Shown here one piece after another: positions 20,048-56,388 of a DNA stretch of 64,000 nucleotides. Position 1 is the stretch's first letter. Each line of letters begins with the position of its first letter. The stretch comes from an uncultured Brachyspira sp. (GTDB lineage: Bacteria; Spirochaetota; Brachyspiria; Brachyspirales; Brachyspiraceae), in contig NZ_CALXYQ010000002.1 in NCBI RefSeq assembly GCF_944393015.1, positions 1 through 64,000 of the forward strand, read 5' to 3'. Under the pieces are notes generated by a model. That model had not been told where the DNA came from and searched no databases. It was given only the letters and a program-made list of their open reading frames with translations. The position numbers and the translations under genes are program-made.

Positions 20048-20124
20048 TATAATATTAATATATTTCATTTCTATAATTAGTTATATAATATTATAGCTTT
20101 TTATATTGTATAATAAAAAGTAAT

Positions 20125-20200
20125 CAGCCGCACCTACAGCGGACTATCCGAAATATTAAGATATACGGTGTGGGAAGGTGGTACAGCTCGTACCGGCGAG
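20125..20200 (+). repeat. 34-loop structured element, copy E2
   Basis: CCGCAC (20128-20133) and GTGTGG (20168-20173) enclose 34 bases. The change C to T in the 3' arm keeps the pair as G-U. Inside the loop CGGA-CTA-TCCG forms a small hairpin. A second hairpin GGTAC..GTACC follows, then GGCGAG. The sequence is close to the copies inside the two split rpn genes. It lies about 90 bases before ferritin but upstream of the ferritin promoter. Confidence 0.6.
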
Positions 20201-25516: not shown

Positions 25517-25545
25517 TTGACAATTTATGTATTTTTTATTATAAT
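25517..25545 (+). promoter_or_regulatory. Leaderless-type promoter of split rpn copy 1
   Basis: TTGACA (25517-25522), 17 bases, TATAAT (25540-25545): a perfect consensus promoter. The ATG at 25553 begins only 7 bases after the -10 box, at the expected transcript start. The mRNA should therefore have no 5' leader. Confidence 0.75.
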
Positions 25546-25552
25546 ATTTATT

Positions 25553-26026
25553 ATGTGTGATTATAAAGATTTGAAATATTTTAATACATTAAATGATTAT
25601 TTTGTTAGATATCTTTTTTCTGATAAAGGAAGTGAAATTATATTATTGGATTTTATTAATTCAATAATGATTGACTCAAATATGAAAACTTTCAGATCTT
25701 TAGAAATTTTAACACCATTTAATTATAAAGAAAGTTATCAAGATAAAGAAACTATTGTTGATGTAAAATGCATAACTCATAATGGTTCAGTTGTAATAAT
25801 AGAGATACAATTACAGGGTAATTCAAGATTTCCAGAACGTATATTATATTATTGGGCTTCTAATTATAGCAAACTATTAAAACAGGGTGAAAAATATGAT
25901 GTTCTCACTCCTGTAATAAGTATTAATTTACTCAATTTATATAATACTTATAGTATAATTAGTAATAAAATAAATTTATGGTGTAATGAAATGTATTCAG
26001 CCGCACCTATAGAAGACTATCTATAA
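25553..26026 (+). pseudogene. Rpn-family PD-(D/E)XK nuclease, N-terminal part, copy 1
   Basis: 157 residues corresponding to the N-terminal nuclease half of the intact gene at 55467-56354. LNDYFVRYLF, the catalytic aspartate in IVDVKC and the ExQ motif in VIIEIQLQGNSRFPERILYYW are all present. After INLLN (near 25935) the sequence departs from the intact gene. It runs into the inserted block and stops at a TAA supplied by it. About 60 codons of the middle are missing. The longer frame from TTG 25508 would lie upstream of the promoter and is rejected. Rpn proteins are toxic DNases linked to phage defence and recombination; whether this truncated form folds is unknown. Confidence 0.8.
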
Positions 26027-26071
26027 TATTTTGAAATACGGTGCGGGTCGGTGCTACAGCTAGTAGGGAGG
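25907..26071 (+). repeat. 165-bp inserted block with 34-loop element, copy E3a
   Basis: This block and 35638-35802 are identical at 164 of 165 positions, although the flanking rpn sequence differs at many third positions. The core CCGCAC (26001-26006) and GTGCGG (26041-26046) enclose 34 bases. The small hairpin AGA-CTA-TCT lies in the loop. CTAC..GTAG and the GGGAGG that serves as ribosome site for the next ORF follow. It replaces about 180 bp of the intact gene. Confidence 0.75.
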
Positions 26072-26076
26072 TTATT

Positions 26077-26355
26077 ATGTCTGAAATAGTAAAAGAAAAA
26101 CCAATAATGGAAGAAGTACAGAAGAAATATAATAATTTTATAAAAGATAGACTAATGATGAATGAATATGATAAAAGACAGACATATTTATATGGTAATC
26201 AAATTATGTTAGAAGAAGAAAGAAAATTAGGGATAAAATAAGGTATAGAACAAGAAAAATATTCATTAGCAAAAAATATGAAAAATAAAAATATGGATAT
26301 TGAACTTATAAGTGAACTTACAGGTTTGAGCATAGATGATATCAAATCATTATAA
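26077..26355 (+). pseudogene. Rpn C-terminal (RpnS-like) ORF, copy 1, with a nonsense codon
   Basis: It starts at an ATG with GGGAGG five bases upstream. MSEIVKEKPIMEEVQKKYNNF matches the C-terminal part of the intact Rpn over its first 20 residues. A TAA at 26239-26241 interrupts it. The same frame continues beyond with the typical C-terminal ISELTGLSIDDIKSL up to 26355, so one point mutation has inactivated it. The repeated Gly-Ile-Glu-Gln linker of the intact protein is also shortened. Confidence 0.75.
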
Positions 26356-35221: not shown

Positions 35222-35250
35222 TTGACAAACTTTATGATTTTCAGTATAAT
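35222..35250 (+). promoter_or_regulatory. Leaderless-type promoter of split rpn copy 2
   Basis: TTGACA (35222-35227), 17 bases, TATAAT (35245-35250): perfect consensus. The ATG at 35257 follows after 6 bases, so the mRNA should begin at or next to its start codon. Confidence 0.75.
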
Positions 35251-35256
35251 ATATTT

Positions 35257-35757
35257 ATGAAAAGAAATTTAAATGCTGTAAAAACTTTTAATCCTTTAAA
35301 CGATTATTTTATACGATATCTTTTCACAGATAAGGGAAGCAGTGAGTCTATACTTTTGGACTTTATCAATTCTATAATGATTAATGCTAATATGAAGACT
35401 TTCCGCTCTGTTGAAATACTTACCCCTTCGCCGAAGGCGGGCAGTCGCCTTAATTTAAAGAAAAATAAAAATTTAAAAGAAACTATTGTTGATGTAAAGT
35501 GTATTACACAAAACGGATCAGTAGTTATTATAGAAATACAATTACAAGGTAATTCAAGATTTCCAGAGAGAATACTTTATTATTGGGCAGCTAATTACAG
35601 TAAGCTATTAAAGCATGGTGAAAGATATGATGAATTAACTCCTGTAATAAGTATTAATTTACTCAATTTAGATAATACTTATAGTATAATTAGTAATAAA
35701 ATAAATTTATGGTGTAATGAAATGTATTCAGCCGCACCTATAGAAGACTATCTATAA
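35257..35757 (+). pseudogene. Rpn-family PD-(D/E)XK nuclease, N-terminal part, copy 2
   Basis: 166 residues with LNDYFIRYLF, the DVKC aspartate and the VIIEIQLQGNSRFPERILYYW segment of the intact gene. Like copy 1 it diverges after INLLN and ends in the stop contributed by the inserted block, losing about 60 codons of the middle. It also carries an in-frame GC-rich insertion at 35427-35449 that adds the residues SPKAGSRLN. I list it as a pseudogene because the fold is incomplete. However, both halves remain open and well placed for translation, so a functional split gene is possible. Confidence 0.7.
35425..35450 (+). repeat. In-frame GC-rich palindromic insertion
   Basis: CCTTCGCCGAAGG (35425-35437) is a near-perfect palindrome, and GGCG..CGCC follows. 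It is about 75% G+C in a gene of about 30%. Copy 1 and the intact gene lack it. It inserts a multiple of three bases and keeps the frame, reminiscent of the palindromic elements found inside Rickettsia genes. Confidence 0.55.
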
Positions 35758-35802
35758 TATTTTGAAATACGGTGCGGGTCGGTGCTACAGCTAGTAGGGA
35801 GG
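35638..35802 (+). repeat. 165-bp inserted block with 34-loop element, copy E3b
   Basis: Identical to 25907-26071 except for one base. Core CCGCAC (35732-35737) and GTGCGG (35772-35777) enclose 34 bases. Ends with GGGAGG, which becomes the ribosome site of the following ORF. Confidence 0.75.
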
Positions 35803-35807
35803 AAATT

Positions 35808-36134
35808 ATGTCTGAAATAGTAGAAGAAAAACCTATAATGGAAGAAGTACAAAAGAAATATAATAATTTTGTAAAAAGTAAATTGATGATGATGGAATAT
35901 GAGAAGAAAGAAGCATATCTATACGGTAATCAAATAATGCTTGATGAAGAAAGAAGATTAGGAAAAGAAGAAGGTATAAAAGAGGGTATTGAACGAGGTA
36001 TTGAACAGGGTATTGAACAAGGAGAAAAAAATAAAGCCATATCTATAGCTAAAAGTCTTAAAAAATCAGGTTTAGATAAGAAATTTATAAGTGAAAATAC
36101 AGGATTAACTATAGAGGAAATAGAGAAACTTTAA
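35808..36134 (+). CDS. Rpn C-terminal ORF (RpnS-like candidate antitoxin), copy 2
   Basis: 108 residues, exactly the length of the corresponding internal ORF of the intact gene. The ATG has GGGAGG five bases upstream, an excellent ribosome site. The protein has MSEIVEEKPIMEEVQKKYNNF, a helical middle, a Gly-Ile-Glu-Gln repeat linker (GIEQGIEQGEKN) and the C-terminal helix pair ISENTGLTIEEIEKL. In E. coli Rpn proteins the C-terminal domain is also made as a separate small protein (RpnS) that blocks the nuclease. By analogy this may be an antitoxin without an intact toxin in cis. It lies in the same transcript as the rRNA methyltransferase gene, which starts 10 bases later. Confidence 0.7.
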   Translation: MSEIVEEKPIMEEVQKKYNNFVKSKLMMMEYEKKEAYLYGNQIMLDEERRLGKEEGIKEGIERGIEQGIEQGEKNKAISIAKSLKKSGLDKKFISENTGLTIEEIEKL

Positions 36135-55293: not shown

Positions 55294-55333
55294 AAAAAGG
55301 CTTTTCATAGTGTTATGAGAAGCCTTTTTATTT
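55294..55333 (+). terminator. Intrinsic terminator of the NHL gene
   Basis: AAAAAGGCTTTTCA pairs with TGAGAAGCCTTTTT. Confidence 0.85.
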
Positions 55334-55338
55334 ATACT

Positions 55339-55399
55339 AAAAAACTTGTTCACTAAAAACATCTGTCAAGTGAACTTGCCAGATGCTCACAAGTTTTTT
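55339..55399 (-). repeat. TGAGC-family structured hairpin, copy B
   Basis: Read on the minus strand, the outer stem is AAAAAACTTGT / ACAAGTTTTTT. TGAGC and AGTGAA flank the inner stem ATCTG.CAAGT / ACTTG.CAGAT. The outer stem differs from copy A at paired positions, so base pairing is kept. Lies between the NHL terminator and copy C. Confidence 0.65.
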
Positions 55400-55419
55400 A
55401 TTTCTTTATACATATTCAT

Positions 55420-55479
55420 AAAAAATTATTCGCTGAAAATATATAGCAAATAAATTTGCTATATGCTCATAATTTTTTT
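55420..55479 (-). repeat. TGAGC-family structured hairpin, copy C
   Basis: On the minus strand, outer stem AAAAAATTA / TAATTTTTT, with TGAGC and AGCGAA, and inner stem ATATAGCAAA / TTTGCTATAT. The TGA of TGAGC is the stop codon of the intact rpn gene. Both the inner and the outer stem differ from copies A and B while remaining paired. Confidence 0.65.
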
Positions 55480-55793
55480 ATTTCTTCTATACTCAAGCCT
55501 GTTAATTCACTTATGAGATTTATGTCCATATCTCTGGCTTTCATGTTTTTTGCCATAGATATGGCTTTATTTTTTTCGCCTTGTTCTATGCCTTGTTCTA
55601 TACCTTGTTCTATGCCTTGTTTGATTCCTTCTTCTATTCCTAATCTTCTTTCTTCTTCAAGCATTATTTGATTGCCGTATAAATATGCTTCTCTTCTATC
55701 ATACTCATTCATCATTAATCTATCTTTAATAAAATTATTATATCTTTTCTGTACTTCTTCCATTATAGGTTTTTCTTTTACTAAATCTGACAT
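55467..55793 (-). CDS. Intragenic RpnS-like ORF (candidate antitoxin) within the intact rpn gene
   Basis: 108 residues in frame with the full-length protein, from the ATG at 55793. AAGGAGG (55805-55799) lies five bases before it, the best ribosome site in the neighbourhood. The matching ATG and site are kept in both split copies. In E. coli, Rpn genes make a short C-terminal product that inhibits the nuclease; the layout here predicts the same. That the site is used is inference. Confidence 0.6.
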   Translation of the reverse strand: MSDLVKEKPIMEEVQKRYNNFIKDRLMMNEYDRREAYLYGNQIMLEEERRLGIEEGIKQGIEQGIEQGIEQGEKNKAISMAKNMKARDMDINLISELTGLSIEEIKKL

Positions 55794-56354
55794 AATAACC
55801 TCCTTATCATCTTTTTCTTTCATTGTGAAAAATTTAAGCCAGCAATTTAAATCAGGCTCTAATGAATTATATTTAAACTTTTTTAATTCTAATATATGTA
55901 TTTGTAAATGGTCTGTTAATAATCTTTTATTAATACTATCATAAATCATATAGCAGGAATGTATAGAGTCATTGTCATCTAAATTGAAATTAAGTAAATT
56001 TATGCTAATTACAGGAGTTAAAGCATCATATTTTTCTCCTTGTTTTAAAAGTTTACTGTAATTTGATGCCCAATAATATAATATACGTTCTGGGAATCTT
56101 GAATTACCTTGCAATTGTATTTCTATTATAACAACTGTTCCATTTTGAGTTATGCATTTAACATCAACAATAGTTTCTTTATCTTCATAATTTTCTTTAT
56201 AGTTAAAAGGTGTAAGTATTTCTACTGCTCTGAAAGTTTTCATATTAGAATCAAGCATTATTGAATTAATGAAGTCAAGAAGTATAGCATTACTATCTGA
56301 TGATGAGAATAAATATCTCACAAAATAGTCATTCAAAACATTAATATTCCTCAT
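55467..56354 (-). CDS. Rpn-family recombination-promoting nuclease / PD-(D/E)XK transposase-like protein, intact
   Basis: 295 residues. Catalytic core in residues 60-110: Asp in TIVDVKC, the Glu-x-Gln in VIIEIQLQ, then NSRFPERILYYW. The C-terminal part is a charged helical region with a Gly-Ile-Glu-Gln repeat linker (about 235-262) and the ISELTGLSIEEIKKL end, as in the PDDEXK_2/Rpn family. Members are DNases that promote recombination and in E. coli act as toxins in phage defence. The promoter TTTACA, 16 bases, TATAAT ends 6 bases before the ATG, so translation should be leaderless. An internal ATG at 55793 has a perfect AAGGAGG. Confidence 0.88.
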   Translation of the reverse strand: MRNINVLNDYFVRYLFSSSDSNAILLDFINSIMLDSNMKTFRAVEILTPFNYKENYEDKETIVDVKCITQNGTVVIIEIQLQGNSRFPERILYYWASNYSKLLKQGEKYDALTPVISINLLNFNLDDNDSIHSCYMIYDSINKRLLTDHLQIHILELKKFKYNSLEPDLNCWLKFFTMKEKDDKEVIMSDLVKEKPIMEEVQKRYNNFIKDRLMMNEYDRREAYLYGNQIMLEEERRLGIEEGIKQGIEQGIEQGIEQGEKNKAISMAKNMKARDMDINLISELTGLSIEEIKKL

Positions 56355-56360
56355 AGCTCT

Positions 56361-56388
56361 ATTATACTAAATTAATTATAAATGTAAA
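56361..56388 (-). promoter_or_regulatory. Leaderless-type promoter of the intact rpn gene
   Basis: On the minus strand TTTACA (56388-56383), 16 bases, TATAAT (56366-56361), then 6 bases and the ATG at 56354. Same spacing as in the two split copies. Confidence 0.7.

What the first reader, a model, noticed from the sequence alone, without database searches (positions are those of the whole stretch)
55467..56388. Rpn genes built as leaderless toxin plus Shine-Dalgarno-driven intragenic antitoxin
In all three copies (25553, 35257, 56354) a near-consensus promoter ends 6-7 bases before the nuclease ATG, so the mRNA should be leaderless. The C-terminal frame starts at an internal ATG with AAGGAGG or GGGAGG exactly five bases away. 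Known: E. coli Rpn nucleases have a short in-frame C-terminal product, RpnS, that neutralises them. Inference: this organism sets the toxin/antitoxin ratio by using two different initiation modes on one mRNA, which I have not seen described. The arrangement is kept even where the coding sequence has diverged.
Basis: partly seen in the sequence, partly recalled or inferred. Interest (0 to 1): 0.82.

Follow-up and report, generated by a model that had tools for sequence, protein, structure and literature searches.

The report
Leaderless nuclease toxin with internal antitoxin
In a gut spirochaete (Brachyspira), nearly all copies of a nuclease gene look as if their message begins exactly at the start codon of the likely toxin, while a strong ribosome-binding site inside the gene starts a short likely antitoxin; this suggests that one gene uses two different ways of starting translation to keep its own poison in check.

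Summary
The window lies in a Brachyspira genome with 29 rpn (TIGR01784/PF12784) loci; 27 of 29 have an exact TATAAT 6-7 nt before the start ATG, against 6 of 372 other ORFs sampled (Fisher 6e-34). Of 125 distinct loci sampled from the genus, 117 have it at 6-8 nt. None of these 117 ATGs has a Shine-Dalgarno site. All 102 intact genes have an internal in-frame ATG with a strong one, stronger than synonymous recodings in 32 of 39 contexts. The internal start is the known RpnS intragenic antitoxin (E. coli, PMC10327210). New is the leaderless-like long start; E. coli rpnA, Priestia, Klebsiella and Megamonas have Shine-Dalgarno-like long starts. An internal promoter, which E. coli has, is not excluded: a conserved protein segment encodes promoter-like sequence about 91-97 nt before the internal ATG, without detectable codon selection. 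Corrections: copies 25553 and 35257 are split genes, and the 25553 antitoxin frame is truncated. Transcript ends, internal initiation, toxicity and the ratio are inferred, not measured. New variant of a known kind.

The parts
56361..56388 (-). Promoter of the rpn gene: -35 TTTACA (56388-56383), 16-bp spacer, -10 TATAAT (56366-56361)
   Evidence: Sequence; TATAAT 6-8 nt before ATG in 117 of 125 Brachyspira loci
56354..56360 (-). Six-nt linker AGAGCT (56360-56355) and predicted +1 = A of the start ATG (56354): leaderless-like start of RpnL
   Evidence: no SD at this ATG
55467..56354 (-). rpn (RpnL), 295 aa, PD-(D/E)XK nuclease plus C-terminal helical domain; D64, E78, Q80 conserved
   Evidence: TIGR01784 1.3e-37, PF12784 1e-45, residues conserved in 102 of 102
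55891..55919 (-). Possible internal promoter: TTAACA (55919-55914), 17 bp, TATATT (55896-55891), 97 nt before the internal ATG; lies on the conserved LLTDHLQIH segment
   Evidence: 2 of 12 mismatches; no codon selection detected for it in the family
55799..55805 (-). Internal Shine-Dalgarno AAGGAGG, encoded by the less used codons AAG and GAG plus the G of GTT
55467..55793 (-). RpnS frame, 108 aa, from the internal ATG 55793 (M188); carries GIEQ-type four-residue repeats
35222..35250 (+). Promoter of split rpn copy 2 (TTGACA, 17 bp, TATAAT; 6 nt to ATG 35257)
35257..35757 (+). Split rpn copy 2, N-terminal nuclease ORF, 166 aa, lacks the end of the nuclease domain
   Evidence: PF12784 positions 1-118 of 229
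35808..36134 (+). Split rpn copy 2, separate RpnS ORF, 108 aa, with GGGAGG at 35797-35802
   Evidence: TIGR01784 positions 184-273, 33.9 bits, below the whole-protein cut-off
25517..25545 (+). Promoter of split rpn copy 3 (TTGACA, 17 bp, TATAAT; 7 nt to ATG 25553)
25553..26026 (+). Split rpn copy 3, N-terminal nuclease ORF, 157 aa, truncated
   Evidence: PF12784 positions 2-119 of 229
26077..26241 (+). Split rpn copy 3, RpnS frame with GGGAGG at 26066-26071; stops after 54 codons, so probably dead
35675..35812 (+). 138-bp segment at the break of the split copies, 99-100% identical at 25944-26081 and in a third split copy (C5:33762-33899); holds a dispersed hairpin element

Best explanation
Each intact Brachyspira rpn gene is a one-gene toxin-antitoxin unit. 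A near-consensus sigma-70 promoter places +1 on the A of the first AUG, so the mRNA is leaderless and the full-length nuclease RpnL starts by leaderless initiation. A strong internal Shine-Dalgarno site (AAGGAGG, GGAGG or GGGGG, about 5-12 nt from an in-frame AUG) loads ribosomes by the ordinary route and makes RpnS, the C-terminal helical domain, which by homology to E. coli RpnS binds RpnL and blocks its DNA cleavage. With a strong promoter and two initiation modes, RpnS should be made in excess; an extra internal transcript may add to it in some copies. Shown here: the sequence architecture, its conservation in the genus, synonymous-site selection for the internal SD, and absence of an SD at the long start. 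Inferred: the actual 5' end, internal initiation, toxicity and neutralisation, and the ratio.
For: 27 of 29 own loci and 117 of 125 genus loci with exact TATAAT 6-7 or 6-8 nt before ATG; linker length 6 in 109 of 117 although there are 47 different linker sequences; base -1 is T or C in 116 of 117 and the start is ATG in 117 of 117, against T or C in 116 of 176 and ATG in 166 of 176 SD-led genes; no SD at the long start (mean +1.06 kcal/mol, 0 of 117 at -4 or lower; 64% of 375 background ORFs reach -4 at their best start within 25 codons). Internal start: 102 of 102 intact genes with SD at -6 or lower; 32 of 39 contexts stronger than synonymous recodings at p<0.05 (mean -10.4 against -3.9); 0 contexts significant at 9 other Met columns; a tenth column, 265, gave 8 of 16, which I attribute to subtypes whose internal start lies there (inference from counts). 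Canonical anti-SD in this genome. An orphan RpnS frame with its SD survives in B. innocens after loss of the nuclease part (L195).
Against: No transcript, ribosome or protein data. Paralogues share descent, so the 125 loci are not independent. 8 of 125 loci depart: 4 have ATT or ATA where the first ATG should be and use the next ATG (TATAAT at 9 nt), 1 at 15 nt, 2 without TATAAT, 1 without a start codon. The window gene has an alternative TTG at codon 7 with an SD-like AGGA (3 of 117 genes have any such alternative). Internal promoter: 15 of 102 genes hold a site within the score range of the rpn promoters, 13 of them 91-97 nt before the internal start; the conserved LLTDHLQIHIIEL segment reads as TTGACA-(16-18)-TATAAT with at most 2 of 12 mismatches in 40 of 71 genes that have it. 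AlphaFold model poor (mean pLDDT 52); no solved relative by sequence.
Confidence: 0.7

Rival explanations
1. RpnS is made mainly from its own transcript, driven by a promoter inside the rpn gene as in E. coli, so the two products do not depend on one mRNA and the contrast of initiation modes is incidental.
For: E. coli rpn genes have an internal TSS for a short transcript expressed above the full-length mRNA (PMC10327210). 15 of 102 Brachyspira genes have an internal site in the score range of the rpn promoters, 9 at 97 nt and 4 at 91 nt before the internal ATG. The conserved LLTDHLQIHIIEL segment gives at most 2 of 12 mismatches to TTGACA-(16-18)-TATAAT in 40 of 71 genes, none in 4 of them; in the window gene it is TTAACA-17-TATATT.
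Against: No codon selection for it: 0 of 11 contexts at p<0.05, 3 of 102 genes in the wider scan, 2 of 40 in a first subsample, so the likeness may just follow from the protein sequence; 31 of 102 genes lack the segment as I wrote it. Lack of codon selection does not exclude a working promoter.
Confidence: 0.28
2. The long start is not truly leaderless: transcription begins further upstream or the protein starts at a later codon, and the promoter-ATG spacing is frozen by common descent of a multiplying gene family.
For: All loci are one family; promoter and N-terminus may have spread together. The window gene has a weak SD-TTG at codon 7.
Against: Linker sequence varies (47 kinds) while its length hardly does; -35 kinds vary; no SD at 117 of 117 long ATGs; 60 of 117 have no other in-frame start before the conserved domain, and only 3 have one with SD. 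A leaderless-like layout also occurs in 14 of 47 rpn loci of other spirochaete families, against a mean of 0.86 and a maximum of 4 for other 4-nt distances.
Confidence: 0.13
3. The genes are decaying multicopy remnants, and the internal SD-ATG and promoter are leftovers without function.
For: Two of three window copies are split, one with a truncated RpnS frame; frameshifted copies exist (L030, L033, L037).
Against: 102 of the 117 leaderless-like loci read through for at least 240 aa; D64, E78 and Q80 invariant in 102 of 102; synonymous selection on the internal SD.
Confidence: 0.08

Closest known systems
E. coli RpnA-E intragenic toxin-antitoxin genes (Zhong et al. 2023, PMC10327210)
   Same: TIGR01784-type nuclease; RpnS from an internal in-frame start with SD (E. 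coli rpnA ...AAGGAG...ATG); four-residue repeats varying in number within RpnS; separate or downstream rpnS copies (here L195 and the split copies).
   Different: E. coli rpnA long start has an SD-like site (gtgaaggaacgccATG; only rpnA was looked at) and an internal TSS makes the RpnS transcript in all E. coli rpn genes. In Brachyspira the long start is leaderless-like; an internal promoter is possible but shows no codon selection. The terms leaderless, Brachyspira and Shine-Dalgarno do not occur in that paper's main text.
Rpn of C. difficile, Priestia, Megamonas and Klebsiella
   Same: Internal start with SD (C. difficile from the paper; the others seen).
   Different: Long starts in Priestia (3 loci), Megamonas (1) and Klebsiella (1) carry purine-rich SD-like sites; C. 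difficile was not examined here.
Leaderless toxin-antitoxin operons of Mycobacterium tuberculosis (Cortes et al. 2013, PMC3898074)
   Same: Toxin-antitoxin transcripts predominantly leaderless: 32 of 37 pairs with a primary TSS (passages).
   Different: Gene pairs, not one gene in another; that the first, leaderless gene is usually the antitoxin is recalled, not read. A quarter of genes are leaderless there; in Brachyspira such starts look rare by sequence.
Leaderless transcripts of Leptospira interrogans (PMC5243855)
   Same: A spirochaete with many transcripts starting 0-10 nt before the start codon (passages).
   Different: In the passages read, leaderless genes were underrepresented in defence (category V); toxin and transposase do not occur in the text.
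Cas11 from internal starts in cas8 or cas10 genes
   Same: Small C-terminal product from an internal start (PMC11899642, passages).
   Different: A structural subunit, not an antitoxin; no leaderless/SD contrast is described in the passages read.

Membership tests
Rpn recombination-promoting nuclease (TIGR01784 / PF12784) | Profile match over the family cut-off | tested here: met
   130.1 bits against cut-off 52.1; PF12784 156.7 against 27.4
Rpn recombination-promoting nuclease (TIGR01784 / PF12784) | PD-(D/E)XK catalytic residues | tested here: met
   D64, E78, Q80 in 102 of 102 intact genes; their catalytic role is recalled from the family, not tested
RpnL/RpnS intragenic toxin-antitoxin | In-frame internal ATG with SD before the C-terminal domain | tested here: met
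   102 of 102; codon-level selection in 32 of 39 contexts
RpnL/RpnS intragenic toxin-antitoxin | Variable number of four-residue repeats in RpnS | tested here: met
   Longest run 1 to 12 tetrads among 102; alignment A1
RpnL/RpnS intragenic toxin-antitoxin | Internal promoter for the RpnS transcript (E. coli) | tested here: inconclusive
   Promoter-like sequence on a conserved segment in 40 of 71 genes (at most 2 of 12 mismatches), but no codon selection: 0 of 11 contexts, 3 of 102 genes
RpnL/RpnS intragenic toxin-antitoxin | RpnL toxic, RpnS neutralises it | not testable with these tools
   Needs expression
RpnL/RpnS intragenic toxin-antitoxin | RpnS three-helix bundle dimer | tested here: inconclusive
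   Model: long helix 220-273 and two short helices, block pLDDT 85-90 only from about residue 261; whole-model mean 52; no fold search run
Leaderless mRNA | TSS at or within a few nt of an AUG start | tested here: inconclusive
   Predicted by promoter position in 117 of 125 loci; no TSS data

The most novel reading that the evidence does not exclude
The pairing of a leaderless toxin start with an SD-dependent antitoxin start is a tripwire for damage to ordinary translation initiation. When a phage, toxin or drug blocks SD-dependent 30S initiation (for example by trimming the anti-SD, or kasugamycin-like stress), synthesis of RpnS falls while the leaderless RpnL mRNA is still read by 70S ribosomes, so the ratio flips and the nuclease is released. 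One gene thus acts as sensor and effector, present in up to about 30 copies whose tails reassort so that the pairs stay mutually insulated.
Probability: 0.15. Interest if true: 0.85.

Novelty: new variant of a known kind. Interest (0 to 1): 0.62.

Why it matters
How RpnL activity is released is called a key unresolved issue in the founding paper, which also notes that RpnL:RpnS ratios vary for unknown reasons. A genus in which the two starts of one gene seem to use different initiation modes gives a direct handle: ratio and release become testable by changing only the initiation route. If the two-mode design is functional, it would be a compact rule for setting the stoichiometry of nested genes and could be looked for elsewhere.

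Tried and rejected
Rejected: that leaderless-like starts are simply common in this genome. With exact TATAAT at 6-7 nt, 6 of 372 other ORFs; with a looser rule the 5-8 nt distances are not enriched (14 of 358 ORFs including 3 rpn, against a mean of 22 per 4-nt window further upstream). Of 5 ORFs with an rpn-strength promoter at 6-7 nt, 3 were the window's rpn; the other two are in L044, without Pfam match, one with a PD-(D/E)XK-like motif by eye.

Caveat against a special role outside Brachyspira: of four other spirochaete genomes sampled, leaderless-like starts occur at 5 of 76 (G042), 5 of 51 (G135), 3 of 68 (G028) and 1 of 47 (G040) ordinary ORFs; in the first two this exceeds other distances, so rpn leaderlessness there may be part of a general habit. 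14 of 47 rpn is a higher share.

That fits those at 72, 66 and 87 nt, not those at 91-97 nt, which lie on the LLTDHLQIHIIEL segment; one search tests that segment. I lowered the best explanation from 0.74 to 0.70 and raised the internal-promoter rival from 0.20 to 0.28.

Led nowhere: Rfam for the hairpin element (nothing but a tRNA at gathering score, and only weak CRISPR-repeat and one sRNA match below it); MazF homologue in this genome (none, so no support for a MazF-type trigger); PADLOC (one weak match, E 2e-4, to a putative invertase over 222-275); PDB by sequence (best E 0.11, not a relative); structure model too weak, so no fold search was run.

First scripts: one search missed motifs in some loci; one search had an off-by-one and printed no promoters; both were replaced. 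In one search the anchor pattern dropped 10 loci; one search repeats it with a wider pattern (56 loci named, 47 used, 9 dropped: 6 duplicates, 3 without anchor). Fisher used 10 of 354; recounting one search gives 11 of 355, so I quote the matched-criterion test. The synonymous test uses codon usage of the window and background ORFs; its contexts are not independent.

Full report
What is there. The gene at 55467-56354 (- strand) encodes a 295-aa protein of the Rpn family (TIGR01784 1.3e-37; PF12784 1e-45). The genome has 30 PF12784 matches in 29 loci (two matches are one frameshifted gene, L037). The 57 relatives found in the named genome collection are all Brachyspira by record title: B. innocens, B. 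hampsonii, B. pilosicoli, B. alvinipulli, strain G79 and uncultured isolates.

Long start. In 27 of 29 own loci an exact TATAAT ends 6 or 7 nt before the start ATG, with a TTGACA-, TTTACA- or TTTACT-like -35 at 16-17 bp in most (L012 counted from its first ATG; exceptions L021, where ATT stands in that place, and L033, displaced). With the same criterion, 9 of 375 background ORFs have it; three are the window's rpn genes, leaving 6 of 372. Fisher's test for 27/29 against 6/372 gives 6e-34. Over the genus 147 loci were analysed; 18 were duplicates and 4 lacked the N-terminus. Of the 125 left, 109 have TATAAT at 6 nt, 7 at 7 nt and 1 at 8 nt; 4 at 9 nt, 1 at 15 nt, 2 without it, 1 without a start codon. 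A -10 element ending 6 nt upstream puts the usual +1 on the A of the AUG. The 117 linkers are of 47 kinds but 109 are 6 nt long; the base at -1 is T in 107, C in 9, A in 1, while SD-led genes of the genome have T or C in 116 of 176. All 117 starts are ATG. If a longer leader existed it would have no SD: duplex energy with the anti-SD is +1.06 on average and never -4 or lower in 117, while 64% of 375 background ORFs reach -4 at their best start within 25 codons. Sixty of the 117 have no other in-frame start before the conserved LNDYF segment, 43 only GTG or TTG, 14 an ATG; 3 have one with an SD-like site, one of them the window gene (TTG, codon 7).

Internal start. In the alignment of 102 proteins of at least 240 aa, one Met column (85 sequences) has a mean SD energy of -10.3 with every member at -6 or lower; the other columns with Met in at least a quarter of sequences lie between -3.1 and +1.8. 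Counting slightly shifted subtypes, 102 of 102 have such an ATG. The SD uses less common codons: AAG is 14% of Lys and GAG 19% of Glu in the background usage printed. In 32 of 39 distinct six-residue contexts the observed SD is stronger than 95% of synonymous recodings; none is at nine other Met columns. A tenth column (265) has 8 of 16, which I take to be the internal start of shifted subtypes (inferred from the counts). The anti-SD of the genome is canonical (one match). This is the best evidence that the internal start, not just the protein sequence, is under selection.

Internal promoter. E. coli rpn genes have a TSS inside the gene for a short transcript expressed above the full-length mRNA. 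In Brachyspira 15 of 102 genes have an internal site in the score range of the rpn promoters, 13 of them 91-97 nt before the internal ATG. The reason is a conserved segment, LLTDHLQIHIIEL, whose usual codons read like TTGACA-17-TATAAT: of 71 genes with the segment, 4 match 12 of 12 positions, 12 match 11 and 24 match 10; in the window gene it is TTAACA (55919-55914), 17 bp, TATATT (55896-55891). Codon choice there is not better than synonymous expectation (0 of 11 contexts; 3 of 102 genes in the wider scan). So an internal promoter is possible, as in E. coli, but unlike the internal SD it shows no sign of selection at synonymous sites.

How it most likely works. By homology to E. coli (PMC10327210: abstract and introduction, first part of the results, repeat section and discussion read) the long form is a toxic nuclease and the short C-terminal form its inhibitor. 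Brachyspira keeps D64, E78 and Q80 in 102 of 102 and has runs of 1 to 12 four-residue tetrads in the short frame. I infer a strong promoter, leaderless initiation for the toxin and SD initiation for the antitoxin, which should give antitoxin excess; a separate short transcript may add to it.

The split copies. Copies 25553 and 35257, and a third at C5:33374, share a 138-bp segment that takes the place of the middle of the gene (99-100% identical). It also occurs over its full or nearly full length in two of twelve relatives searched (97% and 86%), in one of which the flanking rpn is broken by stops (L271). The nuclease frame ends early (157 and 166 aa, about half of PF12784) and the RpnS frame is a separate ORF with its own GGGAGG. 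In 35257 it is whole (108 aa); in 25553 it stops after 54 codons. In B. innocens an orphan RpnS frame with its SD survives without the nuclease part (L195).

Wider comparison. In 47 rpn loci of other spirochaete families (56 named, 9 dropped) 14 have a promoter-like site 5-8 nt before a candidate ATG, against a mean of 0.86 and a maximum of 4 for other 4-nt windows; by family 4/6, 3/7, 3/9, 2/2, 1/2, 1/3, 0/3 and 0/15. Of the 14, 12 lack an SD at any candidate start; of the other 33, 22 have one. An internal SD-ATG in the 50-85% zone is present in 40 of 47. In two of four such genomes ordinary genes also show leaderless-like starts above other distances, so leaderless rpn there may be less special. 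Outside spirochaetes (10 loci), Priestia (3), Megamonas, Klebsiella and E. coli rpnA have SD-like sites at the long start and an internal SD-ATG; Bandiella, Megaera and Planktothrix show no internal SD-ATG and Cardinium only a distant one.

What is known. E. coli Rpn gives the nested toxin-antitoxin; M. tuberculosis gives leaderless toxin-antitoxin transcripts (32 of 37 pairs, PMC3898074, passages); L. interrogans gives abundant leaderless transcripts in a spirochaete (PMC5243855, passages); MazF-trimmed ribosomes that favour leaderless mRNAs are described in passages of PMC3968373, PMC4803016 and PMC5408214. Seven searches listed no paper that, by title and start of abstract, describes a leaderless nested toxin with an SD antitoxin; one search listed no Brachyspira TSS map by title. 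The library holds open-licence papers only, and I opened few of those listed. I therefore file this as a new variant of the known RpnL/RpnS kind.

Noticed in passing
window 20104-20192, 25983-26065, 35714-35796; L089-L092: Dispersed hairpin element (CAGCCGCACCTATAG...GGTGCGG), in 17 places of the genome by DNA search (40 of 102 candidates scored), sometimes in short tandems; two copies (L091, L092) lie a few hundred bases from CRISPR-like arrays (Rfam matches below gathering score), and some copies run into sequence complementary to the array repeat. No Rfam family at gathering score for the five sources tried.
   Followed up: partly
102 intact Brachyspira rpn proteins (alignment A1 shows 16 sequences): The last 36 residues are uncoupled from the rest: identity of the N-terminal part and of the tail correlate at 0.03 over 5151 pairs; 32 pairs have <55% N identity with at least 90% tail identity, 596 have >85% N identity with at most 60% tail identity. 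Suggests tail swapping between paralogues.
   Followed up: partly
L044:4616-5326 (+), G000 contig C2: One of the two non-rpn ORFs with an rpn-strength leaderless-like promoter has a PD-(D/E)XK-like stretch (by eye, no Pfam match) and lies upstream of a DNA methylase-like ORF (by eye): possibly a restriction nuclease with a leaderless start.
   Followed up: no
window 55320-55470 (- strand): Downstream of the rpn stop the gene's last codons and a hairpin-like stretch seem repeated in imperfect tandem, as if the 3' end had been duplicated (by eye).
   Followed up: no
L195 (B. innocens): Orphan RpnS frame with GGGAGG and ATG intact, nuclease part lost: antitoxin frame kept after toxin loss.
   Followed up: partly
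L021, L165, L170, L171: A subgroup whose relatives start ATG-ATG has ATT or ATA in place of the first ATG and keeps the next, giving a possible 3-nt leader.
   Followed up: no
window 55891-55919 and LLTDHLQIHIIEL segment of other rpn genes: A conserved protein segment whose codons spell a near-perfect sigma-70 promoter, exact in 4 of 71 genes: a possible promoter hidden in a protein motif.
   Followed up: partly
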